From assembly GCA_021234155.1 (NCBI GenBank), contig JAJEKV010000004.1, forward strand, positions 13,172,716 to 13,236,715: a stretch of 64,000 nt of DNA, given 5' to 3'. The stretch comes from Isoetes taiwanensis (lineage: Eukaryota; Streptophyta; Lycopodiopsida; Isoetales; Isoetaceae). The notes under the pieces were generated by a model. The model worked only from the letters and a program-made list of their open reading frames with translations. It searched no databases and was not told the DNA's origin. Position 1 is the stretch's first letter, and every line of letters begins with the position of its first letter. Both the position numbers and the translations under genes were made by a program. Positions 25,591-50,150 of this stretch are shown here, piece by piece.

Positions 25591-25624
25591 TTCGTGTTGT
25601 TCTCCCCTGCTTTATATCTTGCCA

Positions 25625-29941: not shown

Positions 29942-30508
29942 TACACCATATATGGTGTCTGCATAAAATTTAAAAGGAAAAAAAGAAAAGGTGTTGTGCA
30001 CAACGAGTTGCCATCCAGTGCCTCAAGAGTGTGTTTGCATATTTTCTGTTTTGTAGCTTCGTATTGGATCTTCTTTGTTTAATACAACTACAATATATTA
30101 GCATTTAAGATTTCTAGCCAGGATAGCACAATATGAAGCATGCCTTATTTTGCCAAAGGTTGATAGAATTGCATCTGTCATCAACATAGAAGCTTTGACA
30201 AGGTTTATGCATCTGGTTGTGTCCTTCGCTCTGAGCCCACTGTAAGAAAAGGACTACGGTGGAGTGCGAAATTCTTCCCTAAGATTTCAATTATCAATCG
30301 TTATCGCTCTTTATTCTCATGTTGCTTATGGATTGAGGAAGGTTTCTTAGAATCTTCCTGATCAAAGGTCCTCATTTTGCATTTATTAAAAATGTATACC
30401 TACATCAATGGTGCAAAATAACCTTCACCACCTTAATATACAACCCGAAATTTTACACGAGGTCTTTCTATTATTGAAGCCTCGTCTAAAATTCTAGAAA
30501 ATGATTGG

Positions 30509-30716
30509 CTCTAATGTGATTGGCAGTTGGTTAAAGTTATGCACTTGGTCGGGGGTTCTAAGAGTACCTGTTGTGGCCCGATGTAAAAACCCGGGGTAGA
30601 TATGGGAGAACATGTGCTTACTATGAACGAAGCGTGTAAATTTTTCTTTATATGACTATAGTCACATTATCGAAGAAGATGACTCTAATGTGATTGGCAG
30701 TTGGTTAAAGTTAAAT
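30509..30716. repeat. SINE-like segment between 34-bp direct repeats (copy A)
   Basis: CTCTAATGTGATTGGCAGTT plus AGTTGGTTAAAGTTA wording at 30,509-30,541 recurs at 30,683-30,715. Between them, CGGGGGTTCTAAGAGTACC-TGTTGTGGCCCGATGTAAAA resembles the B-box and 3' region of plant tRNA-derived SINEs. Copy B has the same layout at 37,027-37,231 with small indels. Confidence 0.45.
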
Positions 30717-30840
30717 TAGTTAGAATAGTTAAGGTTAACTACTATGAGTTGGCACACCCAATCTTGGTTTAGTCAGAGGCAAAGTTGAGCTGCATCAGGT
30801 GCTTCGGAATCATTTGTTGGCTAGTGGCATTGGTTGGCAG

Positions 30841-31028
30841 TTCCTTCTTTCAGTCTTGTTTGATGTCTAATGATTTATCACTACTTAGAAAGTAGAGTCC
30901 TTGCCAGTGGGGTTAGTTATTGGGTTTATTTGTGTTCCTTCTTTCAGTCTTGTTTGATGTCTAATGATTTATCACTACTTAGAAAGTAGAGTCCTTGCCA
31001 GTGGGGGTTAGTTATTGGTTTGTTTGTG
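30841..31028. repeat. 94-bp tandem duplication (copy A)
   Basis: TTCCTTCTTTCAGTCTTG at 30,841 recurs at 30,935, and the rest of the unit is near identical. Also present in copy B from 37,356. Confidence 0.85.
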
Positions 31029-31060
31029 TTGCCCATGTTTCCTGGATGGGCGCTTGCTAG

Positions 31061-31193
31061 TGTTATGCACTAACCCCATAGTGTGCTAACCAACCCACCA
31101 AATGGTGGATCTTTAATGGAAATCGTTATCAAATGGGCCCCAGCCCCAACCTTTCCACAACTTTATCCCATCCTAAGGGGTTAGTGCGTAACA
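31061..31193. repeat. 133-bp LTR-like repeat with inverted ends (unit A end)
   Basis: It begins TGTTATGCACTAACCCC and ends GGGGTTAGTGCGTAACA, near-perfect 17-bp inverted ends starting TG and ending CA. ATTAATATCAG follows, which loosely resembles a tRNA-Met primer-binding site. It may be the LTR of a very small (TRIM-like) retroelement. Related copies lie at 37,576-37,708 and 37,819-37,968. Confidence 0.5.
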
Positions 31194-31997
31194 ATTAATA
31201 TCAGCTCCGGCAATGGCGATGGCGATTGAACAGGCTGCGGAGGGTTTTTGTGGTCTTAAAGATCGATTGCAGCTTGCTTGGTTTAGTGAGATCCGGCAAA
31301 AAATGGGGTTTTGCGTGTAGTAGGGTTGGGCGGCTGGGAGACAACACCCCTTTGTCCCCCAAATGGACAGAATGAAGGCGGTAAGCTAATCGAGTGGGGG
31401 AATCAGATCTGCAGCCGGGGATAAGAGGACGTGCGTCGAGGGGTCCTAGAAAGCGTTTTGCTCCATTGATCTGCATTTTAGGACTGATTCCATTGCTCTA
31501 GGTGCGTTTTTATTTCCTGTGATCTGCTTGATTGGTTTGTCAAGTTCTTGCTCATTTTCTCTGATGGCTTGTTTCTTTGCTCATTGCCTGGTATGCTGCA
31601 GATAGTGTTGATCAAATTTTTTCTGATTGTCATGATTGTCGTGCTTCAGTTCCTTATCAAGGTTGCTTGCCCCTCCTTTCTTCCGTGTCGCATCTTGCTT
31701 CCCTTTGATTGATTGGGGTTTCTTTTGTCCATCATGCCTTAGATCGTTTTGACCATTCCCATCCCTGGCTCCATCGGATTGATCGGGGTTCACTGGCCTT
31801 TGTTGGTTCTCCATCGGCGTTTTTCTGCTTCTCTGTTTCTGTCCAAATAACCGCTTCTTCTCTGCCTCTTCGATTTGACCATCACCCATGCACCGTGGTA
31901 TGGTCTTTGAATTGTTTTTTACCATGATCCAAATCTTCAGACGATTTTTGAGTTCTGATGGACTGCTTTGAGATTAGTCCGTTATTCTTCAAAGTTC

Positions 31998-32104
31998 AAG
32001 GGCCTCCCCTTGCCTCCTGGATCATTGGGTTGGCCTTATTTTGGCGAGACATTTCAGCTTTATTCTCAGAATCCTAATGTCTTCTTCCAAGCCAAGCGAA
32101 GAGG
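31998..32104 (+). pseudogene. CYP707A-like P450 exon fragment (copy B)
   Basis: Same captured exon as at 25,483-25,590, but GCCAAACAGAAG has become GCCAAGCGAAG. That is one base shorter, so the last residues before the former splice site are out of frame. The fragment cannot encode a P450. Confidence 0.75.
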
Positions 32105-32826
32105 TTAGGTGTTGTTCTCCCCGCTTTATATCTTGCCGGGGCATTCTTTGATATTGGCAAAGGGTTCAAATCCCCATCCATAAAAATTCTGGGCATTGTT
32201 CTTGCTTTAAAATACCCTGTTCCTTATTTTTTGTTCTTGCTTTAAAGTGGCCATGGCATTGCCGATATTGGCAAGGGGTTCAAATCCCCATCCATAAAAA
32301 TTCTGGGCAGTGCATAGAATAACAATGGACGGGCACACAAAAAATGGAGTAGCACAGTTTTATATTTTCTTCCAATTCAATCCACCATGCTTGCTTTTGA
32401 AAGCAAGCAAAAATGTAAGTTATACCTTAAGAATCTGCCGCTCATCTGCAGAAATTGAAAATGGCAAACATTGGGCTTCTCCAGGTGATTCCTTCCCGAG
32501 GAATAGTACGCGGTGATTCCACGGGAGAGAATATTTATACGGTGATTCCACGGAAGAGAATATTTACGTGGTGATTCCACGGGGGAGAATATTATCGTAC
32601 GCGGTGATTCCACGGGGGAGAATATTACCGTATGCGGTGATTCCACCCCGCAGGATCAATTCCATGTGATTCCGCCGCATAGAATAAAAGGTTGGTGATT
32701 CCATCCCGCGGTATTTCGCAGACGTGATTCCGCCGGAAGGTATAAAATGGAGCCTGTCAGGTACGGATAACGGGGCAGGTACGGATAACGGGGCAAGAGG
32801 GTACGGATAACGGGGCATGAGGGTTA

Positions 32827-32892
32827 GTGATTCCGCGGGAGAGTTTCACCGCGATGGAATCAACCAAAACCAGGGTAAAGATATTTTCACCC
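32827..32892 (-). repeat. Right TIR of the duplicated Mutator-like element
   Basis: Identical to 26,305-26,370 and followed by the same CTTACTTTG (32,893-32,901). Unit B lacks a left TIR, so this half-element cannot be mobilised alone. Confidence 0.9.
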
Positions 32893-33426
32893 CTTACTTT
32901 GTGTGCAGATATTTGCTTGTCTTTTTGGGTTGCCCCTAAGGGGGCAAACCCTCATTCATGTGGCTTTGTTGCATATTCTAGGTATCTGCCAGTATATGCT
33001 CGAAATATGCCAATAATCGCTCGAAACCCATTATAGGTTGTAAACTATCGGTTGCCCTTGTTGCTGGGTAGCCACTCTAGAAACCGGCTAATCGATGCTC
33101 CTTGCTCGAGCGAAATTGCGATGTGCAGAAGATACGTTGGATTAAGGAACGTGGTTGAAGAACTTGTGTCCATTTGCCAACGGAAGACAACTTGAGTGGC
33201 CTAAACCTGCTGTTGTAGTTGTCTGTCTCTGCCTGCAGAAGAGAATGTGGAAGCCTTGAAATTGGAATGGCTGGTGATGCTTGGCAGGATGAAGATTTTC
33301 CCCTGAAGGGTGTCTTGACTCGAAGCAAGTTCAGATTTTCAGATATATCATCAAATTTTCCAAGGTCTAGCTTCTCATCCTGACAAGCTGTATAAGCTCA
33401 AGGTAATTAGCATTGCTTTATGAACA

Positions 33427-33937
33427 TGGGGACTACATGTTCTCTGTATAGACAAATGCTTGTGAAAGGTGTAGAGCTAGACAAGGTTGCCGGCATTGCT
33501 ATCCTAAGCGCATGCACCAATTCAACAGCATTTTTATAAGGTATGTTGATCCATGCCCTCATTATAAGTAAAGGTTATTAATGTGATCTTGTTGTTGGCA
33601 ATGCCGCGATTGATACGTATGGCAAGTGTGGATATGTTAATGATGCCCATAGGATCCTTTATAAAATGCCTCAACGGGATGTCATATCTTGGAATTCTAT
33701 GATAGGACCTTATGCGCTTCACGGTCTACCAATTTGGACATCTAGGAAAGCTGGATGAAGTAGAGGACTGTATAATAGCTATACCCCTCCAAGCCAATGC
33801 AATGACAGGGAGCTTGTAGGGTCCATGGTGATGAAGAACGAGGTCGGTGTGCTGCACAACGTGCCTTTGGATTGGATCAAAAGACTAGTGGAGCATATGT
33901 GATATTGGCAAACATCTTTGTGGAGTCTGCCAGGTAA
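33427..33937 (+). pseudogene. PPR protein 3' part with E motif, broken (copy B)
   Basis: Duplicate of 26,905-27,415. Here the codons around 33,508 still read 'GIAILSACTNSTAFL', the standard PPR wording, so copy B keeps the ancestral frame at a point where copy A is shifted. The in-frame stops and later frameshifts are shared, so decay predates the duplication. Confidence 0.8.
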
Positions 33938-34382
33938 GCCAAACAGGAGTGCAAAATTGTATGAAGGAAGATTTACTAGCCTGGAAAAACTCATAAACTT
34001 ATTGATAGTCTACAATAAGAGTTGATTTAAAATTCTGGTTTTGATCTTGAGGAAGTGAAGTGAACCTGTTCTAGGTATAGTAAGGGATTCTACTCATTTG
34101 TCCCAGAATACAGTTGTGCTATCATCAGCTGCTTATAAGAATTTTCTTCAAATTGGCAAATGTCATGTAGGTATCATGTTTATATTTGTTCTTTTGACTT
34201 AGGATATGATAGTTCTAGACTATGGCTTACCACATGGAACAGAATGGCCAAGTCTTGCATGTGGAGAAGAGGGCTACCACAAGGGTAAAAAAGCCAGAGT
34301 GATGAGGTATCGTGATAAATGAAGAACTAGACTCTTTTTAAAGAAAATTCATAATGAAGTAAGGAATGCAGAACACAGGTCA

Positions 34383-34642
34383 AAAGTAAAGGTATTTAAT
34401 ATAATTTGATTCTGTTGATGATCATCTCGATGTCGCAGATTATGTTGATTGTGATGAGGCCATTAAACGCCTCAAGCTGGCACAAGGAGTATGATTATAT
34501 ACTGTGTATAGGTGGTTTTGCTTAGTGGACTATTTCGTCCTCTTGGAGTCCCATGTCACAGGTCCCTTGTATGTATCTTGATTTTCCTTGATAATAGATT
34601 GTCGTCCTTCAAAAAAAAAAAAAAAAAAAGTAAAGGTATTTA
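34383..34642 (+). mobile_element. Short poly(A) retroposon (copy B)
   Basis: Duplicate of 27,861-28,126, with the same 16-bp target duplication at 34,383-34,398 and 34,627-34,642. The A run is 19 long instead of 25, and one C/T difference lies just upstream (34,502). Confidence 0.85.
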
Positions 34643-36313
34643 TCTGAAAATTGTTATAACAACTTGATAACAACCAATTCTTTAAGCTTCAAGTGCAAAG
34701 TAATCCGATCATATATGCATTGTGCCATTTGATAGGGCCGGTTTGTCAAACAATCACTATGTTTTTAAGAAAAACCTTGAAGAAAAGTGGTACTTCTAGT
34801 TTTGCAGTTAGAAGTGGTGCAATTGTACACTAGAATTGTCCACACTTTATGGATGTACTCTATAATCTAGTGAGAAATTCAGGGCTCGTCTTCTTTGGCT
34901 TTAATTTCTTAGTGGAGATGGTTCTCGGTGCTAATGTGTATGGAAGAAAACATCCATATATCTCAAATAAATGATATATATTTGTACATGTAGCTCTATA
35001 GACCCTTTGTATATTAAGTATGTGCATTTCTCAACTAGTGTGTTGGTGTTACAGTTTTACCCAAGTGGTCTTTTCATGATCAACGAGCAATGCAACGACC
35101 ATCACACTAGTGCCAAAGGAATTTGACTTGATGGATCATTGACTGAAGTATCCAAACTATGTCCAGACTGTATCTTAGGTTCTGAATCTAAGCATTACTT
35201 CAAGTATTATGCAGTGAAATATTAAGCAACAAATTTGCACAGAAGTCTATGTACATTACATCAACGGACTATTTCTTGAGAGAAAACCCGATGGTCATGA
35301 ACAAGATCAATAGGGAAAACTTATAACATGCTAGAATTGTAAAACTACGAGGTTGAGGATAGACACGTGTAGTAAGCTTTTTGGTACTTGTTCTGCTAAG
35401 CGATTTATGTGGCCGTGATTGAATATGATTTATGTGGCCATGATTGAATATATGAATATAGTGAATTGGGGCCAACTTTGAAGAAACCACTCGTTGTTAG
35501 CATTGGCATAGTGGTTAGACCATTTGTTTGGCTCTCGTCGCCCAAGCAAAAACTCACTGGCCACTACTAATTTAATTATTAGCATATTCGGTATATAATT
35601 GGGTTAGCACAACTCTCACCTTAACGCCCCGGTTCTCGGATTTACACGGTCAGATTTAATCTGGACCGTTGGCTTCACAGCTGTTACCAGCTAATAACGA
35701 GTCCGTGTCTCAAAATTTAGGCAGATTTCCTGTAACACCCTTGGATAATCGATTCAAAATGGCATAACACCCTAGGGCTTTCTTTTCGCTCTGTTCCGGC
35801 AAAGCTCCAGAGAAGGTCGATGGCTCTGTAAGGCATAAACCCAAAAAAAGAGAGGAAAGGTAGAAAAAGCTCCTTGCAGGGGAAGATACGTTACAGGGAA
35901 ACCCTTTCCTGGTGAAGCTGCTTTAACAAAGCTCCACCATAGCTCGCAATATTGCAAGCTCTGAAGCAGTTCTGGAGCTTTATAGCTCGAAATCTCTGGA
36001 GCGAAAACCTGTGAATCTCTGAACCTCTGCAGAAGCTCTATGAATCGGAATAGCCCGGAATCTCTGGATCTCTGCAGAAAAACCTTGTGGCAGATTCATG
36101 CATCACTTTTTTGAGAGTCATACTCACCGGAATGGGGCCTGCCGAAACATATTGCATATTGCCGGAATGACGGATCTGAAGAAAAAAAAACATAAGAGAA
36201 ATGGATTTGCATTACCAGATTAACATCTAGAATGAAAGAGGAATTAGAACAGGGCAGAGGTGAGCTTTGCCAGAACAGGGCAGTGAAAACCCTCGAACCA
36301 GGGCGTTAAGGGC

Positions 36314-36459
36314 GATAACGCCCTGGCCCTCGGGCGTTTACCTCAAAAAAATTTTCGGGCCATGGCCAAAATGGCTCGGATGTGCTGCGCACACCCTCGC
36401 CATTTTGGCCATGGCCCTCAAATTTTTTTTCGGTAACGCCCTCTGGCCAGGGCGTTATC
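36314..36459. repeat. Long palindrome (copy B)
   Basis: Identical in layout to 29,796-29,941, offset by 6,518 bases. Confidence 0.9.
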
Positions 36460-37575
36460 TACACCATATATGGTGTCTGCATAAAATTTAAAAGGAAAAA
36501 AAGAAAAGGTGTTGTGCACAACGAGTTGCCATCCAGTGCCTCAAGAGTGTGTTTGCATATTTTCTGTTTTGTAGCTTCGTATTGGATCTTCTTTGTTTAA
36601 TACAACTACAATATATTAGCATTTAAGATTTCTAGCCAGGATAGCACAATATGAAGCATGCCTTATTTTGCCAAAGGTTGATAGAATTGCATCTGTCATC
36701 AACATAGAAGCTTTGACAAGGTTTATGCATCTGGTTGTGTCCTTCGCTCTGAGCCCACTGTAAGAAAAGGACTACGGTGGAGTGCGAAATTCTTCCCTAA
36801 GATTTCAATTATCAATCGTTATCGCTCTTTATTCTCATGTTGCTTATGGATTGAGGAAGGTTTCTTAGAATCTTCCTGATCAAAGGTCCTCATTTTGCAT
36901 TTATTAAAAATGTATACCTACATCAATGGTGCAAAATAACCTTCACCACCTTAATATACAACCCGAAATTTTACACGAGGTCTTTCTATTATTGAAGCCT
37001 CGTCTAAAATTCTAGAAAATGATTGGCTCTAATGTGATTGGCAGTTGGTTAAAGTTATGCACTTGGTGGGGTTCTAAAGAGTACTGTTGTGGCCCGATGT
37101 AAAAACCGGGGTAGATATGGGAGAACATGTGCTTACTATGAACGAAGCGTGTAAATTTTTCTTTATATGACTATAGTCACATTATCGAAGAAGATGACTC
37201 TAATGTGATTGGCAGTTGGTTAAAGTTAAATTAGTTAGAATAGTTAAGGTTAACTACTATGAGTTGGCACACCCAATCTTGGTTTAGTCAGAGGCAAGCT
37301 GAGCCTGCATCAGGTGCTTCGGAATCATTTGTTGGCTAGTGGCATTGGTTGGCAGTTCCTTCTTTCAGTCTTGTTTGATGTCTAATGATTTATCACTACT
37401 TAGAAAGTAGAGTCCTTGCCAGTGGGGTTAGTTATTGGGTTTATTTGTGTTCCTTCTTTCAGTCTTGTTTGATGTCTAATGATTTATCACTACTTAGAAA
37501 GTAGAGTCCTTGCCAGTGGGGGTTAGTTATTGGTTTGTTTGTGTTGCCCATGTTTCCTGGATGGGCGCTTGCTAG

Positions 37576-38200
37576 TGTTATGCACTAACCCCATAGTGTG
37601 CTAACCAACCCACCAAATGGTGGATCTTTAATGGAAATCGTTATCAAATGGGCCCCAGCCCCAACCTTTCCACAACTTTATCCCATCCTAAGGGGTTAGT
37701 GCGTAACAATTAATATCAGATCCAAGGTTCAATTCCTCGAGATGCTTGCCCTGTAACAATTGATACCAGAGCCAATGTAAGCATCTCGAGGAATTGAACC
37801 TTGGCTCTGGTATGAATTATTACGCACTAACACCATAGTGCTAACCAATACACCAAAAGGGAGGATCCTCCGTGAAAATCGTTATCCAATGGGCCCCAAC
37901 CCCATACCCCATACCATTTACTCTATACCCCACAAACCATATTGATTGGGTGCTAGTGCGTAACATTTGGTATAACCAATGCTCAATTCCTCGTGGTAGT
38001 ATTGGTGGATTTTATATGAGGGCAAGCATCCCGAGGAAGGGGAGGATTGATATGGTCTATGGGGTCAATACACTAAAAGGGCGAATCCTTCATGAAAAGA
38101 GTTATCCAATGGGCCCCAACCTTTCCAAGGCTTTACACCCCATACCCGACAGGCTATATCAACTAGGCAATCTCCAGTGGGCTTTCACATGTTCTACCTA
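37576..38200. repeat. Cluster of short LTR/MITE-like repeats with inverted flanks
   Basis: Three related units share 'ATCGTTATC-AATGGGCCCCA-CCCCA' wording: 37,576-37,708, 37,819-37,968 and a partial one at about 38,065-38,165. The first two have TGTTA/ATTACGCACTAAC starts and GTTAGTGCGTAACA-type ends. Between them is a perfect 24-bp inverted repeat: AAGGTTCAATTCCTCGAGAT (from 37,724) and its complement at 37,780-37,803. Hence unit two is flanked by extended inverted sequence on both sides. Either a TRIM with rearranged internal DNA or a foldback DNA element fits. Confidence 0.5.
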
Positions 38201-38324: not shown

Positions 38325-40072
38325 TGCGGTGTTCCCCTAAAATATATGGTATATAAATACATATATTTCTAGGCCATGTTACCATACAAGCCTATCTTAG
38401 TAGCTTTGTATACCGTAGAGTGTGGATAAGGGAGCATGCCTAAGGTATTTACATAGCTTAGCAACCTTAGGAATGGGACCATTTCCACATGACACCCGCC
38501 ACACGAACGCACCCAATTGGAGTCACGTGGCATAGCATGGTAACCCTAACCTATAAATGGCCAAACCCTAACCCTAGGTTTTCTGGCTCCAACAGTCTTG
38601 GAACCTTGTTCGCGCGTGAAACTCTGTTTCGAGAACCATCTGTTGTGGCATAGCATAGCACAACAGCCCTCAGAGTGTGCGCACATTGGAAGGAGTGCGA
38701 GCTACTTCGAACCCTTTGAAGGCCATGGAGACGCCGGAAGCAGGAGGGGATTCCTCAGGAGCAGGTATCTGGAGGTAGTCCTTTGTAGATCATCTGGAAG
38801 TTAGAATTCCAGATGAGTCAACATTTCATATCTCTGGTAGAGCCATTCTAGAACCCTCAATCTTGATCTTAAACCCTAATCAATGAATCCTACTGTAAGA
38901 GCAGGTATCTGGAGGTAGTCCTTTGTAGATCATCTGGAAGTTAGAATTCCAGATGAGTCAACATTTCGTATCTCTGGTAGAGCCATTCTAGAACCCTCAA
39001 TCTTGATCTTAAACCCTAATCAATGAATCCTACTGTAAGTTAGATGCATATGATTAGGATTAGATGTTATTCTCATTTGTTATCATGTTATATGGATATA
39101 TGATGATAGTTGATCATGTTTGCTCCTCTTGTATTGGGAAGGGGGGTAGAGACATAGTATCCATTATTTAGATGATGCTCCTAGCTTAGACCCCTTAGTT
39201 CCTATTAAATGTGGCCTGTGCATAAGAGCCCACCTAGGGGCTATGGAGTGACTAGGCACCACATAACGAGGTTAGTGGTAAAGTGGAGGGAGGTCCCTAC
39301 TGAGCGCGGCTACTGGGGACCCATAGCGAGCTAGGCCTATAATCGGTCATTTCATGTGGGCTGGGTATGGGTCCGACACTTCTTGGGTCAATGGTGTTGC
39401 CCTGACTCTCAAGAGTTGCAGGTGTCGGCCTGGCTCTTGTTTTGATAAGTTCAGTCGGGTACGGACGTGTGTCATCACGATTCTTGAGCCGTCCATGGAA
39501 CCACTATTCCCCATGAAGGGGAGATGCAACCCTTCCTACCTCATCGGACAGGGGAGATGCAATCCAGAGTAGTCCCAATGTGTGATACCATGAGGCTATA
39601 CCTCTGGCAGGTTATACTCATGCCAGAGCCCGATTTCGACCATCTGCAAAGTATGTACAGGAGAGGCGGATGGAGTGGTCAACCCTATCTATTGTCTATA
39701 GCCAGCCCCGCCATTGTTATATCTTGGTCTGCTCTATCTTGAGGCCCAACCGCCAGTCTGCTTCCCTTACGCGTCTGAGCCTGGGCAGAAGCTCATATAT
39801 TTTACTATATGATGTTATCTTGATGTATCTATGGATGGATGGATGTGCTACACTGGTAGTTGTTTATGTTATATTATTGCCGGTGCTAACATTGTAGTGT
39901 GCTTCCGTTGTTATAGGAGCCCATAGAAAGATGGGCGCGAAAGACACCTTCGTGTTTCCCTATCCACATCCTGGCCATCCCAGGAACAGGGCAGATGGAA
40001 GGCCCGTGCAACAGATGATGCTGGATGGGGGATTTCTTGTATACGGCAGGGCATCGTATACTTTCAGGAAGC
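38325..40072 (+). repeat. 5' LTR of the chromovirus
   Basis: Begins TGCGGTGTTCCCCTAAAATA, aligned with TGTGACGTTCCCCTAAAATA of the 3' LTR, and ends near a CATCGTATACTTTC word shared with it. It is about 1.75 kb, some 140 bp longer than the 3' LTR because of an internal tandem duplication. CCTATAAATGG (about 38,550) is a candidate TATA box for element transcription. Confidence 0.85.
38761..39040. repeat. 140-bp tandem duplication inside the 5' LTR
   Basis: GCAGGTATCTGGAGGTAGTC at 38,761 recurs at 38,901, and the full 140-bp unit is repeated with about one difference. The 3' LTR has a single copy, so the duplication arose after integration and is much younger than the LTR divergence. Confidence 0.9.
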
Positions 40073-40144
40073 GGAGGGGTGGGGGACACCTCTGAAACCA
40101 ATGCAAGACCCCCCTACCCAAAGTGGCTCAAGCCCCCTAAGGTA

Positions 40145-40545
40145 ATGAAGAGGCAGAGGAAAAGACCTTCAAGCTCAAGAAGGACCGGGAGTTCGGGAGA
40201 AAGAAAGGGGGGGAAGCCCCAGAATCAGCCCAAACCTCCTCCTCCAAGACTGGTAAAGTCAAAGAGGGTCCACAATGGATCCAATTCGAGGCACTGAGTC
40301 TTCCGAGAGATCTGGCATTTTCAGCAATGCACCAATCTTCTGATCCGGAAGGCACTATTCGAACGGTTGCTCTGGGAGATTATGCCGGATTTTAGGAGGG
40401 ACTATCGAGTGACACCCCTAACGGTCCGATCCCTGCAGGAGGCAGCAGAGGCAGAGCTAGTCCAGCTCTTTGAAGAGGGCGATCCATGCCAAAGGGTCAC
40501 GTGGACCTAAATCTAGCAAATAGGATTAGGAAAGATAAAATCTAA
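40145..40545 (+). pseudogene. Histone H3-like protein encoded inside the retroelement, broken
   Basis: Histone H3 packs DNA in nucleosomes. From ATG 40,145 a lysine/arginine/proline-rich tail of about 50 residues ('MKRQRKRPSSSRRTGSSGER' at its start) leads into the fold. 'FREIWHFQQCTNLLIRK' matches H3 'LREIRRYQKSTELLIRK' (alpha-N). 'ALFERLLWEIMPDFRRD' matches 'LPFQRLVREIAQDFKTD' (alpha-1). 'VRSLQEAAEAELVQLFEE' matches 'VMALQEACEAYLVGLFED' (alpha-2). After a short deletion the next frame gives 'DLNLANRIRKDKI' and a stop, matching 'DIQLARRIRGERA' (alpha-3). One TGA (40,295-40,297) and the deletion/frameshift near 40,480 inactivate it. Loop 1 has canonical-H3 length, unlike CENH3, but the tail is not canonical H3. 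No poly(A) or target duplication flanks it. It lies between the LTR and gag, in element orientation. Confidence 0.8.
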
Positions 40546-40769
40546 AGTCCTTTGGTGTGAAATTTTGACTATAAATATATTGTAGCTTTTCAATTAATGT
40601 ACTTGGTTAGAAAAAATTGTTCAAAAAGGTCAAATCTAGGTCGAAATCCATTTTCTAGTCAGATCGCACCAAACGCATTTCCAAGAGTCTCAAAAAGGCC
40701 TTTTGCGCAGTGTGAATGGATTTACCCATAAAATTGATTAGAATGAACATTTTTCTAGGAAATAAAGTG

Positions 40770-41909
40770 ATAAATAGACTGATGGACCGTTCTTGGCGCT
40801 CACGTTCCGCCTGCGGCTAGGGCGGCAACAGGGGAAGGAGGCCGCCCTCCTATCCCCTCTTTCCGGTACTGCTGCAGACCTTCTTGCAAACCAGATAAGA
40901 TGATCCGGTGCTAGTGGGGTTTGCCGATGTGCCAGAAGATTTTTTTCTTCAAAGAAATTGCTGATTTGATTCTGGAGCTGCTTCAAGGCGGTCTTGTGGA
41001 TTTGGCCTGGTAAGCCACTAACGTGGTATTCTGCTCTCAATCTTTTTAAGAATGATGATTTGTTAAGCAAATCACACCGAAAGGGCGCAGAGTCTATAAG
41101 GTGGAGCAGAATTGAAGCCGAATTTATAAAGAGAGCAGTTTTGGGTCTGTTTGGCAATCTTTTTAGTTGGAACTTCTATCCATTTGGTTTTTTCCCCTCG
41201 TCTTGCTCTTTCTTGCTAGCGGAAAGATCTAGGGATGTTTTCTTGAAAGGAGCAGAGTAAATTCTTGATCTTAAATTTCTGAGTTTTAAAACGGGATGTT
41301 AGATTATTTGAGATCGCCGAGCTAGGGATTTGAATGTGTCGGGGAAGACGCTTCCATATCAAGACCCGAGATATCATGAGCCAGAATTAGGGAGAGTTCT
41401 GGTGGCTGGGCTGTGTGTCTAGCCTATACAGGTTGGCTGACTGGAGCATCCCGACAATGCAGCATCTTACTTTAATCTTTCATTTGGTTGTAAAGCTGTC
41501 GAATTTGTTCATAGATTGAAGCATATTTGCTTCTCTGAGCAGTGCGGGAGATTGTTCAGGTTACTCCACATCTCTTTTCTCTTCATTTCTATTTCTGCAA
41601 GAGGTTTTTTGGAGCATTCAGGATTGTCTGCAGTTTATGGAAAATGGGAATTTGAATCCTGTAGTATTCTATTTAACTGAGAAGATGTTGATACTGTAGT
41701 ATTAGTTAGATAGAAGAAGAAGTTGAGAGAGACTCATGAGTACTATAACTGCAGATATAACTCAGATCCATGTGGGATCCTATACGCTTAAATTATATCT
41801 GATCCATGAGGGATCTTTGTATTGTAATTCTTCCAATCTGATCAATACAAAAAGTTCTTACCTTCAAAAAAAAAAATAATAATAATAATAAATAAATAAA
41901 TAGACTGAT
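40770..41909 (+). mobile_element. Poly(A) retroposon with 14-bp target-site duplication
   Basis: ATAAATAGACTGAT occurs at 40,770-40,783 and 41,896-41,909. The roughly 1.1-kb body (40,784-41,895) ends in an A run followed by AAT repeats. Target duplication plus a 3' A-rich tail shows LINE-mediated retroposition into the chromovirus. The body carries no protein I recognise; a minus-strand frame (40,738-41,157) extends across the duplication and is probably chance. It could be a processed copy of an mRNA 3' region or a LINE/SINE of unknown family. Confidence 0.8.
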
Positions 41910-42354
41910 TTTGACAAATGGATCAACTTAGCAACTTACATTAGTCAAATCGATTCCTTTTGACCAAAATAAGCCATTTTCTGGTCAAACCTTGCCAAAC
42001 GCTTTTCCGAGAGTCTCGAAAAGGCCATTAGCATGATGTGACCGGATTTGCACCATCTGACCCAAATTTGTCGCAAAAATCGCCCAACAAATCATTCTAT
42101 GTGTTTCTTGTATTCTTTTAGCTAGACTAGCAGATTAGCATCTCAAATCAGCCAGATTGAAATTCTTTAGCTCCTAGAACATAGATTTTGCCGAACAGGT
42201 AGTTCCGGCATGGAAACTTAGGCAACCCTAGTCTATATAAGGGGACCCCATTTGATTGTTTTTTCTTCACCAAGTTTGCTTCCACCTTGTATAGGCAATT
42301 TTTCAAATTATTTTTCAATATTTACAAACCATTTTCTGGCCCAGTCTCTGCCCA

Positions 42355-43730
42355 ATGGCCCCTACCAACTTCATCGAATGGCATCATAACTACATCAGCA
42401 AGATGCCGGTCGCCAGGTCTTTGATCATCTCTTCGACCTTCACGCAACATTGACGAGGATGCCCTACTACACCGACATCATATGCCAGTATCATCAGCAG
42501 GTCTTACTATGGGAAGTTAGCCTCCCACCATGGGGAGGAAAATAGGTTTTCTTGGACGCGCTCACTCAGGGGTTGGGCCAGACATCCGAAATCAAGAAGC
42601 AGATCTGGGATAGGACAACAAATATGCCAGATTACATGAACTGCAATGTTCATAGGCACTGTTACATCTCGTCTCAAGCGGCTCTCGCCATATTCATACA
42701 CTTCAAAGCAATCAACAAGGTGGGAGACCCTTCCATACAACCATTGGATCTAGCACCCTTGAACACGAGGGTGAATCAGTGCTACATCCAAGAACTCGAT
42801 GCCAACAAATACGTCTACCATGGTACGTCATCGGGCACATCTCAGCTTGAAGGAGATTATGAAGAAGTGGAAGAGCAAGATGAGGAAGAGTAGAGCAGGA
42901 TAGCAGATAGGATGAGAAGGCAGCTGGAGAGGCAAGATGAGGATCTAAGAAGGGCCACAGATCCACCAATAGGCATTACTGTCTTATCCCCTCGTTTATG
43001 ATATCCTCCAACTAGAATACTGCTTGGAGGAAGGATTGAGAATCGACGAGCTCTTAGAGTTGATTGTAGAAGGGCAGCAGAGAGATCTCATCGACTACTC
43101 GTACCAGGAGATTCCATGAGAGGCAGCAAATCGATACTCCTATGCTGCGGAGACAATGTCGATGTAGCAGTGTATGAGTACATAAAGCAGGTCTGTCAGC
43201 AACACCAACCAATCATCTAAGAAGAAGAATTACATGCAATCCGGAGCACCCTATACAAGCCAGACAGAGGCCCAAGCACAAGTCGCCCCATCCGATCAAG
43301 TAATGTAAGGGAGAGGTCCCATGTCAACTTGGAAGAGTACAGCCACCATGTTGAGGGATCACGACGACCTCTTAGCTGTGGACATCTATGGCAATGCGAC
43401 ATGGAAGAAAGGTACAGGAGCAGGCAAAGCCAAGATGGGGCATAAAAGGGAAAGATCCTCCAATACTACCTCCGAGTTTTATGCCAAGGTCAGATGATAG
43501 TATTCCATAGGGATTTCAGCCCAAGAGAAGAGGAAGCGGCTTCACTCCTAATGGTGCTCATAGGTTTCGGCCAACACGCTAAGATGGGAGAAAATACTGA
43601 TCATATTATCCTCTTTAAAAGATTAGTAGCACTCTACTACTTGGATTTCGCACGAGGGCATCTGCGAGACACACCACTAACAGTAGTGGCAGCCATGGCA
43701 TGCCAACTTCTAGCCCCCCAGATGGCATGA
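42355..43730 (+). pseudogene. 5' gag/leader region of the chromovirus, degraded
   Basis: ATG 42,355 ('MAPTNFIEWHHNYISK') lies about 100 nt after a TATATAAGGGG word and is the plausible gag start. It stops after about 32 codons. Further open pieces at 42,552-42,893 (ending in an acidic 'EEVEEQDEEE') and 43,494-43,730 lie in different frames. No standard gag fold is recognisable in these pieces, so assignment rests on position. Confidence 0.5.
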
Positions 43731-44533
43731 GCGCTGGAGGGAGGATCTTCATGCAACATTGGCAAGGGTCTTCGGCTTAAGGATATTAAGAACTTCTCCA
43801 AGTCAAAGAAGAGTTCTGGGGATTAAACTTCTCTTAAAAATGTGTTAATTAAATGTCTACATCATATGTACTACTATTATCATAATATTTCAAGTTCTAT
43901 AATTATATATTCATGTTATAATTAGAATATTTCATTGTAACCTTGAAAATTGAGTTTCAACTTGATTTCTTTTATGGGTAAGATGAATGAATATAGATAT
44001 GTCATAACAACATATAACTTTGAGTAACAAATATGTGTGACTAATCCTTGCAGCCAGAAACATCGGCTCCGGCTCACAAGGTCAGGGCCAACAACATAAC
44101 TGGCAACCTAGGAACCTCTTTGGTCGGGAACATGAGGAGGAAGACAACATGTCAGTGGATATCATTAACATAAGGTTGGTAGAAATGTGTAATCAGATGG
44201 AGCAGTAGCTAGTACAATGGGCCATGCCGCTCATGTGAGAGTGTGGGCCTATGCCACCATCACCTCCCCAAGAACCAGAACAAGCAGATCAGTCAGAAGA
44301 AGAGGTTCAAGTGGCAGATAAGAACAGAAAAAGGAAAAGAAGAAGAAGTCCAAGTACCTCCAGCTCCAGCCCAGCTGACAGTATGGACAGTGGATCATAC
44401 AGTAGCTCAAAAACTTAGTCAGATAGCTTATATGGTAGGAACAGGAACCGTAAGCCAAAAGATTTCCAGAAGAAAATTGACAGTGCTATGAGCAATGTTT
44501 AGAAAACCTGGAAGCTAGGTCAATTTTTTTGGA

Positions 44534-44941
44534 AAAGACCAATTAGATATAGAAGCGGAAGTGTGGTTAGATGAGATGGAGGAGTTTGAAAACTCTTATG
44601 GCATGAAGGATAAGGATATCGACAAAGGTTATGCCAAATCTAATAAGTTGAAAAGGAACAATTGCAGGTTCAAGACTTTCAGTAAAGCCTTCTGCAAACA
44701 CTATATCCCAAGGTCTCACACAAGCAGGCAAATCTAGCAATTCTATAGACTAGGCCAAGGGAACTTGTCAGTGGCTAAGTATACAGAAGAATTCATGAGA
44801 CTGAGATTAAATGTACCAAGGATAATGGAAAGACAAGCGGTGGATGTATACATCGAAAGATTGAACATCAATATCAAAACACTTATTCGAGTTATCAACC
44901 CCAGGACAATAGAGGAGATAGAAGACAACGCGTTGAGCTAG
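44534..44941 (+). pseudogene. gag core domain (Retrotrans_gag) of the chromovirus
   Basis: 'WLDEMEEFENSYGMKD' opens the segment, followed by 'FCKHYIPRSHTSRQI', 'QFYRLGQGNLSVAKYTEEF' and 'MRLRLNVPRIMERQAVDVYI', the conserved capsid signature of plant Ty3/gypsy elements. A TAG replaces a probable CAG between 'RQI' and 'QFYRL', and TAG at 44,939 ends the frame early. Gag would form the virus-like particle that packages element RNA. Confidence 0.85.
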
Positions 44942-45057
44942 AAGAAGCACCCCCAACCCCAGAACAAAAGAAATCCTTCTACAAATGAAAGGCAACAGTG
45001 TCTTATCCCCCTAAGCAGACGTCGACCAGAACAACAGGGTAGCAGTCACAGGGTAAG

Positions 45058-45530
45058 ATGGATAAGAAGGGCTCATACAGGGATCAACAAGCACCAGGGG
45101 GCCCAGCAAGGAAATTAGTAAAGTACTTCCTGGACATCATCCCAAAGGAAAAGAGGAAAGAGCGCATTAAGAAGAAGTTATGCTTCAGATATTTCCAGCT
45201 GAGACACCGTATACACGATTGCCCATTTGTTATGCAAGCAGCCTTGGCAGAACTTATAGATTGGGAGTCGCTGACAGAACTGGATGACGATGACAACCAG
45301 CATGAGGCACATGACTACATTGAGGGTGAGTGTAGGATATGTGCAGCAATTGAGTTAAGTAATGTCAAAGGTCAGTCCAAAGTTATCTCAACAATGGGCA
45401 CCATAGATAATAAGCCCTATATAGTCCTCATAGCTACAAGTAGCTCCCACAACTTTGCTTCGCCCAGGTTAGCAGCATTCTTGAAATCCAAGTCTCTCAA
45501 ATCGAAGCCAAGGTCAGTTAGTATGGCAAG
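45058..45530 (+). pseudogene. Zinc knuckle and aspartic protease of the chromovirus, inactive
   Basis: A damaged CCHC knuckle reads 'CFRYFQLRHRIHDC', with the second Cys replaced. The retropepsin follows with 'GTIDNKPYIVLIATSSSHNF' where active family members read I-D-T-G-S-S-H-N-F. The catalytic aspartate and following glycine are both changed, so the protease is dead. The flap-side 'FLKSKSLKSKP' then runs into the deletion junction at about 45,530. Confidence 0.85.
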
Positions 45531-45539
45531 TGGGGTATT

Positions 45540-46070
45540 ACGGGAAGTTTGTGAAGGACTTTGCCAAGTGGATAGCTCCCTTCTTAGATCTCATCAACAT
45601 CATAAAGTTAAAGATTGGGTGGATCATTGGGTCTAGAACATTCAGACCTCTTTTGACAAGCTCAAGAAAGCCTTGACAATGGTCCCAATGCTGACATTGC
45701 TAGATCCAGATAAAGATAAGCTTGTGGCAACTGATGCAAGTAAGATAGCCACAGGGGGAATACTTATGCAGGAGGGCAGAGTTGTAGCATACGACTCTAC
45801 AAAGATGAATGACACAGAGCAACGCTACCCAACTCATGATCAAGAGCTTTTAGCCGTCATCAGGGCCCTATGTATTTGGATGCACTATTTGCTGGGAAGA
45901 AAATTTCAGTTAGATACTGGTCACTAGAGCCTCCAGTACATCTTCACGCAACTACTTCTCAATTTAACACAAAGATGTTGGATGGAGTTCCTGGAAGAAT
46001 ATGATTTTCAGATATCATACAAGCCAAGGAAGTAAATGTGGTTGCAGACGCACTATCTCGTTGGCCTTTG
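45540..46070 (+). pseudogene. RT connection and RNase H domain; RT core deleted
   Basis: Immediately after the protease comes 'GYYGKFVKDFAKWIAPFLDL', the block that normally follows the RT thumb. The YxDD palm and fingers of reverse transcriptase are absent, implying a deletion of several hundred bases at about 45,530. RNase H follows: 'KLVATDASKIATGGILMQ', 'YPTHDQELLAVIRAL' and the tail 'VADALSRW'. A TAG at 45,925-45,927 and a frameshift near 46,030 interrupt it. Confidence 0.85.
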
Positions 46071-47286
46071 GCGACTAGAGTGCATTGCAATGCCATCTTG
46101 ACCCTCTGCAGCGAGTTCGGCAAGAAGATTGAGGATGCTATCCCCTATCATGAAGAATTTCGAGAAACATGGGCTAGTCTTTGCAAGGAAGCAAGGACAG
46201 AGAAGGAAAGGGAGGCCTACAAGAAATTTAACAAGGCAACCTTTTATACTATAAGGATAAGCTTTGTGTCCCACAAATATCAGGAGTAAGGAAGTTGATC
46301 CTCCACGACACTCACAATAGCCCTATAGCCGGCCACATAGGATTTATGAAAACATACGTCAAGATAAGAAGTAGCTATTTCTGGTCTGGCATGAAGAAGG
46401 ACATTGCCAAATATATCCAGAGTGTCAGTTATGCCAGCAAATGAAGGCAGAGCAACTTTGAATTCCAGGGGCTCTTGAACCATTGGCGGTGCCAAATGCC
46501 AAGTGGAAGATGGTGAATATGGACTTCATCACGGGTCTTCTTTGAACATCTAGGGACCATGATGCTTTGATGGTAGTGGTCGACAAGTTGTCTAAAATGG
46601 CACATTTTTTGCCATGCAAGGCCACAGTCACAACCCTAGACATATGCTTGCTTTTTGCCAAGGAAATCTTAAGCTGCATGGGATGCCTAGAGGGATCATA
46701 GTTGCATTTTGGAGAGACTTCTTCAATACCATTGGGCAAAGCTTTGTATAAGTACAACATATCATCCCCAAACTGATGGTAAGATAGAGAGGACGAACAT
46801 GATTTTGGAAGATATATTGAGGCATTATGTCTTGAACAAGCAATCAAAGTAGGACTATATCTACATGGTTGAATTTGCATATTATAACACCAAGCAAGAA
46901 TCATCTCAGATGTTCCCCTTTATGATGAATTATGGCTATCAATGCCTTCTTCCTGTGTCAAAGATAGAAGTGTCTTAATAGTTGTTGGCAGATATGCAAC
47001 AATTAGTGGAAGAGGTCCGAGGATATTTCCTCGCAGCAAGAGCCGTCAAAAAAGATTGGCAGAGAAGCATATAATAGTAACAGAGTTCAAGGTGAGTGAT
47101 AGGTGTGGCTTAGGATAAAGGTAAAGCAAGCAAAGCTCCGCATCGGCAACTGCAAGAAACTTACTCCAAGGTAGGCGGGGCCTTTTAAGATTGTGGAGCG
47201 AGTAGGTACCCAAGCCTATAAGCTTGACTTACCTGCCTATCTAAAGGTGCATAAGGTCTTCCACGTGAGCCTACTCAAGGGGCATA
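46070..47286 (+). pseudogene. Integrase of the chromovirus, degraded
   Basis: The N-terminal zinc finger is visible as 'ILHDTHNSPIAGHIGF' and 'SYFWSGMKKDIAKYI' with a C-x2-C pair. The catalytic core start follows ('MDFITGL', first D present; 'LMVVVDKLSKMAHFLPC'). The C-terminal GPF/Y block reads '[20 protein letters not shown]' and '[11 protein letters not shown]'. Several stops and frameshifts lie between. The frame is cut at 47,286 by the solo LTR, and the chromodomain resumes at 48,938. Confidence 0.85.
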
Positions 47287-48932
47287 TGTGACGCTCCCTG
47301 CTAAATATATGGCGCCCGGCCGTACACTCCACAGGAAATCCCCCATCCGGTCCTTCGACCGCACGGGCCCTCCGTCTATCCCGCACTCTGGGGTGACCCT
47401 AGTGCGGGAAGGGGACACGAAGGTGTCTTGCGCGCCCTTCCCCTATGGGCTCCTATCACAGCGGAAGCATAAACAACGTCAGAACGAGCACTACAACACA
47501 TCATGCTACCTCGAAGTGTAGCCCATCCACATATCTATAACCACAGAGAAGATAATCATATGCCATAAAACATGAGAGCTCCTACCCATGGCTCCGACTC
47601 ATAAGGAAGATGACTGACTGGCTAGGCCTCAAGATAGAGCAGACCGAGTCATAACAATGGCGGGGCTGGCTATAGACAATGGCTAGGGTTGATCACTCCA
47701 TCCGCCCCTCCTGTGCATACTTTGCAGAATGAGCTAGATCGGGCTCTGGCATGACTCTAGCCTTCCAGATACGCAATCCCATGGCATCACCCATCAGGAC
47801 TACTCCAGGTTGCATCTCCTCGGTCCGTCGAGGCAGGAAGGATTGAATCTCCCCTTCCCGTGGTCTAGAGGTTCCACGGGCGGCTAGAGAATCGTGGCGA
47901 CACACGACTCGTACCCGACTTAACCCCCCAAAACAGGAGCCAAGCCAACACTTGCAACTCCTGAGAGGCAGGGCGACACCATTGCCCCAGGAGGTGTCGG
48001 ACCCATGCCCGGCCCACACAAAGTGACTGGCCATAAGCCTAGCCTGCTATGGGATCCCCAGTAGCCACGCTCAGCAGGGATCCCCCATCCATATTGCCTC
48101 TAGCCCCGTTGTGTAGCGCTGAGTCACATCATAGCCCCAATAGCCCGGTGGTCTCTTATGCACAGGCCGCATATAATAGGAACTAAGGGATCTAACTAGG
48201 AGCATACTACGTATTGGCTACTAGGTCTCTACCCCCCTTCCCAATCCAAGAGGAGCAAACATGATCAACCAACATCACATAACATCATATCATGATAATC
48301 ATAATAAGAACATCTTAACCTAATCATACATATCTAACTTACAGTTAGGGTTCCTTGATTAGGGTTCAAGATGTTGAATAAGGGTTCTAGGATGGCTCTA
48401 CTCTAGATACGAAGTACTAACCCATCTGGAGTGCTAACTTCCAGATGATCTACCAAGAGCACTACTCTACATACCTGCTCCAGAAGCACTCCCTCCCAAG
48501 CCTGGCGTCTCCATGGTCTTCGAATTGGTCGAAGCTGCACTTGCTCCAAGATCGAATTCACACTCCGGAGGCTGCTGCACTAGCCTATGCCACAACAAAC
48601 GGTGCTCGAAATGGAGTTTCGAGTGCGTAGATGAGTCTCAGGGTGCTAGGGTCAGGAAAAGAGGTCTAGGGTTAGGGTTTGGGCTAATATAAATTAGGGT
48701 CCACATGGGATGCCACGTGGCACCAATGGGGTGGGGCCGTGTGGTGGTTGCCCAATAGGATAAGGCCATGTGGAAATGGGCCTTATCCTAAGGTTATCTA
48801 AGTTAAGCATTTAAAATTAGATGTGCACCCATTGCCACTTCCTAAGGTATACAAGGCTACAAGGGTAGACTTGTATAGTGACGGGTCCAGGAATATACGT
48901 ATTTATGGCGTATATTCCCCTGGAACGTCACA
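47287..48932 (-). mobile_element. Solo LTR of a related element, opposite orientation
   Basis: This 1,646-bp segment begins TGTGACGCTCCC and ends GGAACGTCACA, with TG/CA ends and inverted TGTGACG/CGTCACA termini. It is flanked by the perfect 5-bp duplication GCATA (47,282-47,286 and 48,933-48,937). Read on the minus strand it aligns over most of its length with the host element's LTRs, but it is clearly diverged from them. No internal region remains, so it is the product of LTR-LTR recombination. It shows what intact LTR ends of the family look like. Confidence 0.95.
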
Positions 48933-48937
48933 GCATA

Positions 48938-49222
48938 CCCCAAACTCAAAGGAGCTTTTGGAGACTCCAACCTGAACAAATTGAAATAGTTCCCAAATTG
49001 ATTCTTGACAAAGTGTTCAAGAAAACAAGAGGTCTCAATTCCTTCAATATTTGATCAAGTGGAAGCACTTGCCATGGAACACACGACGTGGGTATTGAAA
49101 CATGATTTAGAGAAGCAATACCCGCAATTTATGGAACAGCTCGACGACCAAGTCATCTCCGAATTGGTCGACGCCAATCTGCCAGCTGCTCTTAGCGTAG
49201 CTTGTTTGTGCCTTAGTGTTTA
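48938..49222 (+). pseudogene. Integrase C-terminal chromodomain of the chromovirus
   Basis: Directly after the solo LTR the integrase tail continues: 'PKLILDKVFKK' and 'FLQYLIKWKHLPW', then after a one-base frameshift 'EHTTWVLKHDLEKQYPQFME'. This is the chromo-fold pattern (YLIKWK-HLP-W-E-TW) at the position typical of chromoviruses, where it directs integration to marked chromatin by binding histone H3 tails. One aromatic cage position is read as Y/W here, but the frameshift makes cage completeness uncertain. Confidence 0.75.
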
Positions 49223-49256
49223 GGCTAGTTGAGATGCATACATGGAAGTCTTGGAG

Positions 49257-49740
49257 CGTGGACGATGATGAGATCCCCCTTAAGTGTTCTCTATGACAGT
49301 ATGCACCAAAAGTGTGCATGATCGAGAGGGTCATGTAAGAGGAGTGCATGATCATGGGCGATGATGGGATCATCTGGGATGTTCCCTATCTTAAACCTTC
49401 AGGACCACGATGCACTGCGAGTGTGCATGACCGGAGGGATCATGTACGAGTAGTCAGGGGATCGTGGGTGATGGCGGGATCATCGTAGGATGTTCTCTAT
49501 GCCATGATGCACAACATGTGCACATGACCGTAAGGGGGTCATGATGAGGTAAGCGTGATCATGCGCGATAATGGATTATCGTCGAGGATATTCCCTAGCT
49601 TAAACCCTCAGGGGCATGGTGCATTGCAGGTGTACACGATCAAGGGGATCCTGTACAAGGTAGCACCTGATCATGGGCGATGATAGGATCATCTTACACA
49701 GTCCTTAAGCTCAAATCCTTTAGGCCATGATCGAGTGCAA
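49257..49740. repeat. Degenerate ~100-bp tandem repeats before the 3' LTR
   Basis: About four and a half units of roughly 95-115 bp each start GGGCGATGATGGGATCATC or a variant, followed by 'GTTCCCTA', 'TTAAACC-TCAGG' and 'GTGTGCATGACC' words. Units begin near 49,257, 49,358, 49,468, 49,565 and 49,677. Non-coding repeats near the polypurine tract are known from some plant gypsy elements; the function is unknown. Confidence 0.75.
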
Positions 49741-50138
49741 AGTATTAGAGGTAACCTTGAGCTAGTAATTCGGTTCAAGGAGGTAATTAGAGGGGTGGTC
49801 CTATAAAACTACAACTTATCAACTAAACTAACGTAATGTGCTACTTGTGCAAGCTAATGAAGGAGGAGCATGGAGGAGGGAGCATGTTACGAGAAGATAG
49901 GATTCACAGATTTTAGAATTGATTATGAACTCCTAAACACGTTGTGATAACATTATGTGCTAACTTTTATAATAATAGCTAAGGCTATATAATTTTGTAT
50001 AGGTATATAAATGTAGCCTTACAGTTAATCTTATAAGTGATCTTTCAATAAAGTCAATTGCCATATTCTTGTTGTGTGACCTTGCAAGGTTGATGCAGGT
50101 TCGTCATCTTACCGTAATGCTGAGGACAACGTTATGCT

Positions 50139-50150
50139 AAGGGGGGAGAA
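50139..50150 (+). other. Polypurine tract of the chromovirus
   Basis: AAGGGGGGAGAA lies directly against the TGTGACG start of the 3' LTR, where plus-strand DNA synthesis is primed in LTR retroelements. Confidence 0.85.

What the first reader, a model, noticed from the sequence alone, without database searches (positions are those of the whole stretch)
40145..40545. A Ty3/gypsy chromovirus that carries a histone H3-like gene
Between the 5' LTR and gag, in element orientation, lies a frame with a basic 50-residue tail and all four H3 helices in order ('NLLIRK', 'FERLLWEI', 'LQEAAEAELVQLFEE', 'DLNLANRIRKDKI'). The tail is not canonical H3, and loop 1 lacks the extra residues typical of CENH3, so it looks like its own variant and not a fresh copy of a host H3 mRNA. 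No poly(A) tail or target duplication flanks it. If it is a standard part of the family, the element encodes a nucleosome component, which I have not seen described for LTR retrotransposons.
Basis: partly seen in the sequence, partly recalled or inferred. Interest (0 to 1): 0.92.

Follow-up and report, generated by a model that had tools for sequence, protein, structure and literature searches.

The report
Retrotransposon family encoding histone H3 variant
A very abundant plant-type jumping gene appears to carry, as a regular and well-preserved part of itself, its own version of histone H3, the protein that packages DNA; the copy in this window is a broken old relic.

Summary
The H3 likeness is real: 40298-40510 matches H3 (PDB E~1e-12, Pfam Histone 1.1e-9). 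The window copy is a relic (stop in frame, broken C-terminus; tail start, PBS and RT not found). It is not a one-off: every scored place in the unnamed 1.66-Gb genome matched (40, 150). Order in well-kept copies: LTR, primer site, H3-like ORF1 (MARTKCTARK..., charged tail, H3 fold), unknown ORF2, gag, PR, RT, RNH, INT, chromodomain, LTR. Of 150 ORF2 hits, 34 have a listed H3 fold upstream on the same strand (29, chance 0.05; 5). 41 of 150 H3 hits lie in frames of 350+ residues. Fold dN/dS is 0.08-0.09, like ORF2, gag and PR; wrong frames give 1.25-2.7. The fold is ~64% identical to canonical H3, without CENH3's longer loop 1. So a chromodomain retrotransposon encodes its own H3 variant under purifying selection. 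The literature searched held no such report. Function (nucleosome variant or H3 mimic) is inferred; other species could not be tested.

The parts
38331..40073 (+). 5' LTR of the window element (contains a 140-bp internal tandem duplication 38759-39038); its 3' tip, the primer site and the leader of relatives were not found
   Evidence: self-BLAST, 82-84% to 50157-51752; duplication; relatives read CGTCACA-A-TGGTATCAGAG, absent here
40046..40297 (+). remnant of the long charged tail of the H3-like ORF1, ending in a TGA stop (40295-40297); about 80 bp lacking near 40205 compared with relatives
   Evidence: tblastn with L028 tail, 40046-40159, 47%, E 1.8e-5; split matches in relatives; translation
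40298..40510 (+). H3-like histone fold, open stretch (alphaN to alpha2)
   Evidence: PDB H3 E~1e-12; PF00125 1.1e-9; 52% to canonical H3
40486..40545 (+). remains of the C-terminal helix (MPK..DLNLANRIRKDKI) in another frame
   Evidence: sequence; indels against relatives
40784..41895 (.). about 1.1-kb insertion ending in an A-rich run, flanked by ATAAATAGACTGAT on both sides; probably not part of the element
   Evidence: read from sequence; not followed up
42355..43772 (+). ORF2, degenerate; unknown protein, listed open frames of 500-581 aa at many other places
   Evidence: tblastn with L042/L048 pieces, 42414-43772; start read; frames; no Pfam match above cut-off and no PDB match for the pieces searched
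44525..44977 (+). gag remnant
   Evidence: tblastn with L042 gag, 69%, E 7e-71; family gag = PF03732/PF19259 in L042 and L048
45019..45543 (+). zinc-knuckle and protease region remnant
   Evidence: tblastn 61%
45511..45924 (+). RNase H region remnant; the RT query gave no match in the window
   Evidence: tblastn 45511-45861, 59%; 45637-45924 PF17919 2.2e-26
46283..47053 (+). integrase remnant
   Evidence: tblastn 45%, E 1.3e-60
47287..48933 (-). solo LTR of a sister subfamily inserted in reverse orientation, flanked by TATGC on both sides
   Evidence: up to 94% to LTRs of H3-bearing copies; termini and duplication
48952..49190 (+). chromodomain remnant
   Evidence: tblastn with L048 chromodomain, E 1e-18; PF00385 in L042 and L048
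50157..51752 (+). 3' LTR
   Evidence: self-BLAST

Best explanation
A Ty3/gypsy chromovirus family in this plant-type genome carries as its first gene, just after the 5' LTR and primer site, a histone H3 variant: an H3-like N-terminus (MARTKCTARK), a long Q/E/K-rich insertion, and a complete H3 fold. SHOWN: the gene recurs at the same place in many copies and is under purifying selection as strong as that on the element's own proteins; the window holds one decayed copy. INFERRED: the protein pairs with host H4 and enters nucleosomes (or pre-nucleosomal H3-H4 complexes). Because its first ten residues copy the K4/K9 region of H3, while the rest of the tail and H3 position 56 differ, I think it alters the chromatin of the element or its target sites, easing silencing and/or offering nucleosomes on which the integrase can act. 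Confidence that it is a selected element gene is about 0.95; that it acts as a nucleosomal H3 variant about 0.45. The score below is for the whole statement with 'acts on chromatin as an H3' read broadly.
For: Homology: profile of 10 copies against PDB histone H3, E~1e-35 over the whole fold; PF00125 6.4e-26 for one copy. Family feature: fold in 30 of 30 loci, which were found by the H3 query; of them tail 26, LTR-end or leader upstream 23, ORF2 or its 5' flank downstream 20. In 10 copies with 10-kb flanks: LTR upstream 8, ORF2 downstream 8, gag 6, PR 5, INT plus chromodomain plus 3' LTR 2 (L028, L022). Independent direction: of 150 ORF2 hits, 34 have a listed H3 fold upstream on the same strand, mostly 1.5-1.8 kb away; chance 0.05 for the first 29. 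One ORF2 hit chosen before the H3 list was known has the H3 end open. Primer site TGGTATCAGAG in 7 of 7 upstream stretches scanned. Selection: fold dN/dS 0.077 (18 copies), 0.089 (30), 0.090 (8); ORF2 0.10-0.11, PR 0.096, gag 0.055; wrong frames 1.25-2.7. Internal branches 181 syn/49 nonsyn, terminal 216/193. H3-type N-terminus at the expected place in 14 of 30 loci. Frames of 350+ aa for 41 of 150 hits, one of them with a stop inside the match. In copy L026 the H3 residues R63, R69, R72, R83, C110, H113, K115, R116 and D123 are kept (their roles recalled).
Against: No expression, protein or ChIP data. AF2 gave low confidence for the isolated fold (pLDDT 54). None of the 30 loci read has one open frame from MARTK to the end; longer frames are known only from the lengths and from 235 open residues of L051. 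16 of 30 loci lack a recognisable MARTK start. The 12 of 30 loci dropped from the 18-copy dN/dS have stops or gaps in the fold. Pairwise ratios are not independent, and the 30 loci are the nearest relatives of the window copy, not a random sample. Conservation shows use, not which use. 116 of 150 ORF2 hits have no listed H3 partner; only 150 of about 9,000 candidates are listed, so this cannot be read either way. A distant relative with ORF2 and gag (L032:5646-9707) has a charged ORF1 without a detectable H3 fold. Seed-plant chromodomains lack most of the H3K9me cage and their partner is unknown (PMC6317226, passages), which weakens a chromodomain-reads-H3 step.
Confidence: 0.7

Rival explanations
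1. H3 mimic or decoy: the protein stays off DNA and uses its MARTKxTARK tip and H3 fold to occupy histone chaperones, H3K9 or H3K4 methyltransferases or readers, blunting silencing of the element.
For: The first ten residues copy H3 (Q5 to C) while the stretch after them does not look like an H3 tail; the long acidic and Q-rich insert is unlike a normal tail.
Against: The whole fold, including residues that contact DNA and the H3-H3 interface (roles recalled), is conserved under dN/dS about 0.08; a pure tail decoy would not need it.
Confidence: 0.25
2. Packaging role: the basic histone fold and charged tail coat element RNA or cDNA in the particle or pre-integration complex, as an accessory to Gag.
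For: The gene lies upstream of gag in the same sense and under similar constraint.
Against: The H3-specific N-terminus and H3-H3/H4 interface residues would not be needed for nucleic-acid coating (inference).
Confidence: 0.15
3. Passenger: a host H3 gene caught once and carried along neutrally, or a host retrocopy inserted in one element.
For: Plant LTR retrotransposons are known to catch host genes (PMC7264820, passages); the window copy is broken.
Against: Same place in many diverged copies, dN/dS about 0.08 with median dS about 0.8, long open frames, only about 64% identity to canonical H3.
Confidence: 0.03
4. Captured CENH3 used to aim the element at centromeres.
For: The alphaN motif HFQ..TNLLI is shared with Arabidopsis CENH3; the clade joins CENH3 at 62% support.
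Against: Identity is higher to H3 (56/88) than to CENH3 (43/88 and 49/88); loop 1 has the H3 length. References typed from recall; long branches.
Confidence: 0.1

Closest known systems
Ty3/gypsy chromoviruses of plants (Tekay/Del, Reina, CRM, Galadriel; PMC6317226, passages only)
   Same: gag, PR, RT, RNH, INT order, chromodomain, tRNA-Met-type primer site, long LTRs
   Different: two extra genes before gag: H3-like ORF1 and ORF2. Clade within chromoviruses not tested
Orchid Ty3/gypsy elements with an extra 2-ODD/AlkB m6A demethylase ORF (PMC9289625; passages and section 12 read)
   Same: an extra ORF with a host-like regulatory domain fixed in a gypsy family
   Different: different domain and lineage. 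Section 12 reports 15 non-canonical domains from 121 angiosperm genomes; its text names no histone among those it describes (supplementary chart not seen)
Canonical histone H3 and CENH3
   Same: H3 fold aligned without gaps to H3, MARTKxTARK N-terminus
   Different: ~64% identity, insert of ~250 residues between N-terminus and fold, H3 K56 replaced (Q or M in copies looked at), carried by a mobile element
Virus-encoded histones (Marseilleviridae, bracovirus H4; recalled, not looked up)
   Same: histone gene carried by a genetic parasite
   Different: DNA viruses, not a retrotransposon; other histones or fusions

Membership tests
Ty3/gypsy chromovirus | gag-PR-RT-RNH-INT order with LTRs | tested here: met
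   Pfam domains in L042 and L048; whole order in L022's copy; L028's copy lacks RNH and part of INT, the window copy RT
Ty3/gypsy chromovirus | chromodomain at the integrase C-terminus | tested here: met
   PF00385 1.8e-10 and 2.6e-11
Ty3/gypsy chromovirus | tRNA-Met-type primer site after the 5' LTR | tested here: met
   TGGTATCAGAG in 7 of 7 upstream stretches scanned; tRNA assignment recalled; not found in the window copy
Ty3/gypsy chromovirus | placement in a named clade by RT/INT tree | not tested
   no plant reference set at hand
Histone H3 family | H3-type histone fold by profile | tested here: met
   PF00125 6.4e-26; PDB H3 1e-35
Histone H3 family | H3 N-terminus with K4 and K9 | tested here: met
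   MARTK..ARK-type start in 14 of 30 loci, 3 of the 14 with a changed A7 or R8 and 1 with T3 changed; the following tail is not H3-like
Histone H3 family | confident predicted histone-fold structure | tested here: inconclusive
   AF2 pLDDT 54, four helices in order
Histone H3 family | incorporation into nucleosomes with H4 | not testable with these tools
   needs biochemistry
CENH3 | longer loop 1 | tested here: not met
   same length as H3, shorter than At and Os CENH3 (references recalled)
CENH3 | centromere localisation | not testable with these tools
   needs ChIP or imaging
One-off host retrocopy | single copy, near identity to a host H3 | tested here: not met
   40 and 150 scored places matched; host H3s are 96-98% to canonical H3 while this fold is ~64%

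The most novel reading that the evidence does not exclude
A chromodomain retrotransposon makes its own nucleosomes: its H3 variant is laid down on element or target chromatin, keeps that chromatin from being fully silenced, and is recognised by the element's own integrase. In this genome such mobile H3 genes (about 9,000 first-look candidates, 150 scored) would far outnumber the 15 canonical H3 genes seen. A second multicopy H3 family, closer to canonical H3, with frames up to 567 aa (135 of 150 hits; not shown to be mobile), would mean H3 was taken into mobile elements more than once or is still diversifying there.
Probability: 0.3. Interest if true: 0.97.

Novelty: new variant of a known kind. 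Interest (0 to 1): 0.9.

Why it matters
Retrotransposons are usually seen as objects that chromatin acts upon. Here an element family appears to bring a core-histone gene of its own and to have kept it by selection while the copies diverged to a median dS of about 0.8. That would make directly testable whether a genetic parasite can edit the nucleosome itself to escape silencing or choose its landing sites, and it gives a natural set of H3 sequences evolved outside host control. It also bears on genome annotation: many H3-like frames in such a genome may be mistaken for host histone genes.

Tried and rejected
One-off retrocopy: rejected by copy number, position and selection. Chance similarity: rejected. 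CENH3 capture: not favoured. ORF2 identity: no Pfam match above cut-off and no PDB match for the pieces searched, and a useless model. Fold search was not run because the models were poor. Protein database search with the H3-like peptide found nothing (5 candidates, none significant), so that collection seems to hold few plant proteins; other species could not be tested. Literature: listings (20 of 60 shown); passages; one section; six searches timed out. Clade assignment, host CENH3 and the context of the second H3 family were left open; the distant-ORF2 search meant to test the latter did not complete. Own error found on re-check: the gag, RT, RNH and chromodomain queries, and the ORF2a query, had been translated one frame off; one search repeated them in the right frame. 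Places and counts held (gag in 6 of 10, ORF2a in 17 of 30, union 20 of 30), with stronger scores for gag and chromodomain; the RT query still has no match in the window. In one search the gag reference begins off-frame, so frame 2 is its coding frame.

Full report
WHAT IS IN THE WINDOW. A degenerate LTR retrotransposon lies on the + strand, 38331-51752, with LTRs 82-84% identical. The copy is dead. A stop separates tail and fold, the last helix is in another frame, about 80 bp are lacking near 40205 compared with relatives, and the LTR tip, primer site and MARTK start of relatives were not found. Gag, protease, RNase H, integrase and chromodomain remnants are recognisable; the RT query found nothing. 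A solo LTR of a sister subfamily is inserted in reverse at 47287-48933.

A REPEAT FAMILY. A DNA search of the window's own genome (1.66 Gb, unnamed) gave 548 first-look candidates; 40 were scored and gave 44 matches. A protein search with the fold gave 9,032 first-look candidates; the 150 scored matched at 88% identity or more. First-look numbers are not verified copies. Of 30 loci read, all have the fold (they were found by it), 26 the tail, 23 the LTR end or leader upstream, 20 ORF2 or its 5' flank downstream (ORF2 part repeated). In ten copies with 10-kb flanks on each side, an LTR lies upstream in 8 (in L020 about 5 kb away), ORF2 downstream in 8, gag in 6, protease in 5, integrase with chromodomain and a 3' LTR in 2 (L028, which lacks RNase H and part of INT, and L022, which has the whole series). 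L030 and L024 had no upstream LTR; L020 and L030 no ORF2. The primer site TGGTATCAGAG follows the LTR in 7 of 7 upstream stretches scanned (L035, the eighth with an LTR, and L043 and L049, without one, were not scanned).

THE REVERSE TEST. Searching by ORF2 alone gave 8,412 first-look candidates and 150 scored hits, many with listed frames of 500-581 residues, some of these with stops inside the match. 29 of these 150 have one of the 150 listed H3 hits 1-8 kb upstream on the same strand, 25 of them at 1.3-1.8 kb, against 0.05 expected, and none of the listed hits within 12 kb lies in a wrong order or strand. A second H3 list adds five, so 34 of 150. The remaining 116 cannot be judged because only 150 H3 hits are listed per search. 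One place chosen from the ORF2 list before the H3 list was known has 235 uninterrupted residues ending in the H3 fold; it is also one of the 29.

THE PROTEIN. ORF1 starts MARTKCTARK or nearly so in 14 of 30 loci, goes on with a charged, glutamine- and glutamate-rich stretch, and ends in a full H3 fold. None of the 30 loci has the whole in one open frame, but 41 of 150 hits elsewhere lie in listed frames of 350 residues or more, one of them with a stop inside the match. A profile of ten copies matches PDB H3 at E about 1e-35. In copy L026 the H3 residues R63, R69, R72, R83, C110, H113, K115, R116 and D123 are kept while K56 is Q, M in L051; the roles of these residues are recalled knowledge. 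The isolated fold was predicted with low confidence.

SELECTION. In 18 of 30 copies with a covered, stop-free fold, median dN is 0.064 and dS 0.79, ratio 0.083. The summed ratio is 0.077 for these 18, 0.089 for all 30 loci and 0.090 for the eight copies used for the other genes, for which ORF2 gives 0.10-0.11 (6 to 8 copies), protease 0.096 (4) and gag 0.055 in its own frame (5). Wrong frames give 1.25 to 2.7. On internal branches 181 synonymous and 49 nonsynonymous changes were counted, on terminal ones 216 and 193: selection while the lineages were active, decay afterwards. The 30 loci are the nearest relatives of the window copy, not a random sample, and the pairs are not independent.

WHAT IT PROBABLY DOES. 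Shown: a recurrent, selected gene of the element. Inferred: an H3 that can pair with H4 and act on chromatin. I favour a nucleosomal variant that changes the chromatin of the element or its targets, with a decoy for silencing enzymes as the main rival and packaging as a lesser one. Against a simple reading by the element's own chromodomain: seed-plant chromodomains lack most of the residues that bind methylated H3K9 (PMC6317226, passages); I did not test which type this one is. Nothing here measures expression or binding.

WHAT IS KNOWN. Additional ORFs in plant gypsy elements are a known kind; the nearest precedent is the orchid element with an m6A demethylase ORF (PMC9289625, passages and section 12). 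Its section 12 reports 15 non-canonical domains from 121 angiosperm genomes and names no histone among the domains it describes; its supplement was not seen. The review PMC7264820 has no occurrence of 'histone' in its main text; PMC6317226 has one, about chromodomains. Searches (20 of 60 papers listed) listed no paper whose title or shown abstract start reports a histone in a retrotransposon; most subscription papers and all bioRxiv preprints are missing from that library. So: a new variant of a known kind, and an unusual one.

OPEN. No other species could be tested. ORF2 without H3 (L032:5646-9707) suggests the H3 domain was gained, or lost, within a wider group with ORF2. A canonical H3 query found 15 host genes and 135 further hits at 71-86%, some in frames up to 567 residues: a possible second multicopy H3 family that I could not look into.

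Noticed in passing
own genome, places listed: A second multicopy H3-like family, 71-86% to canonical H3 mostly over residues ~25-135, often in frames of 420-500 residues; its context is unknown.
   Followed up: no
L032:5646-9707: A distant chromovirus relative with a charged ORF1, ORF2 (30-37% identical) and gag (65%), but no detectable H3 fold.
   Followed up: partly
window 40784-41895: About 1.1-kb insertion with an A-rich end and 14-bp flanking duplication (ATAAATAGACTGAT), between the H3 remnant and ORF2.
   Followed up: no
window 47287-48933: Reverse solo LTR of a sister subfamily with TATGC target duplication inside the window element.
   Followed up: yes
window 24685-37723: Tandem duplication of about 6.5 kb, 99% identical.
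   Followed up: no
L040:7119-9993: A further LTR followed by another H3 tail, next to the first element: LTR and H3 gene adjoin again.
   Followed up: partly
L026 and L051, fold: H3 position K56 is Q in one copy and M in another; K56 is a well-known acetylation site (recalled).
   Followed up: no
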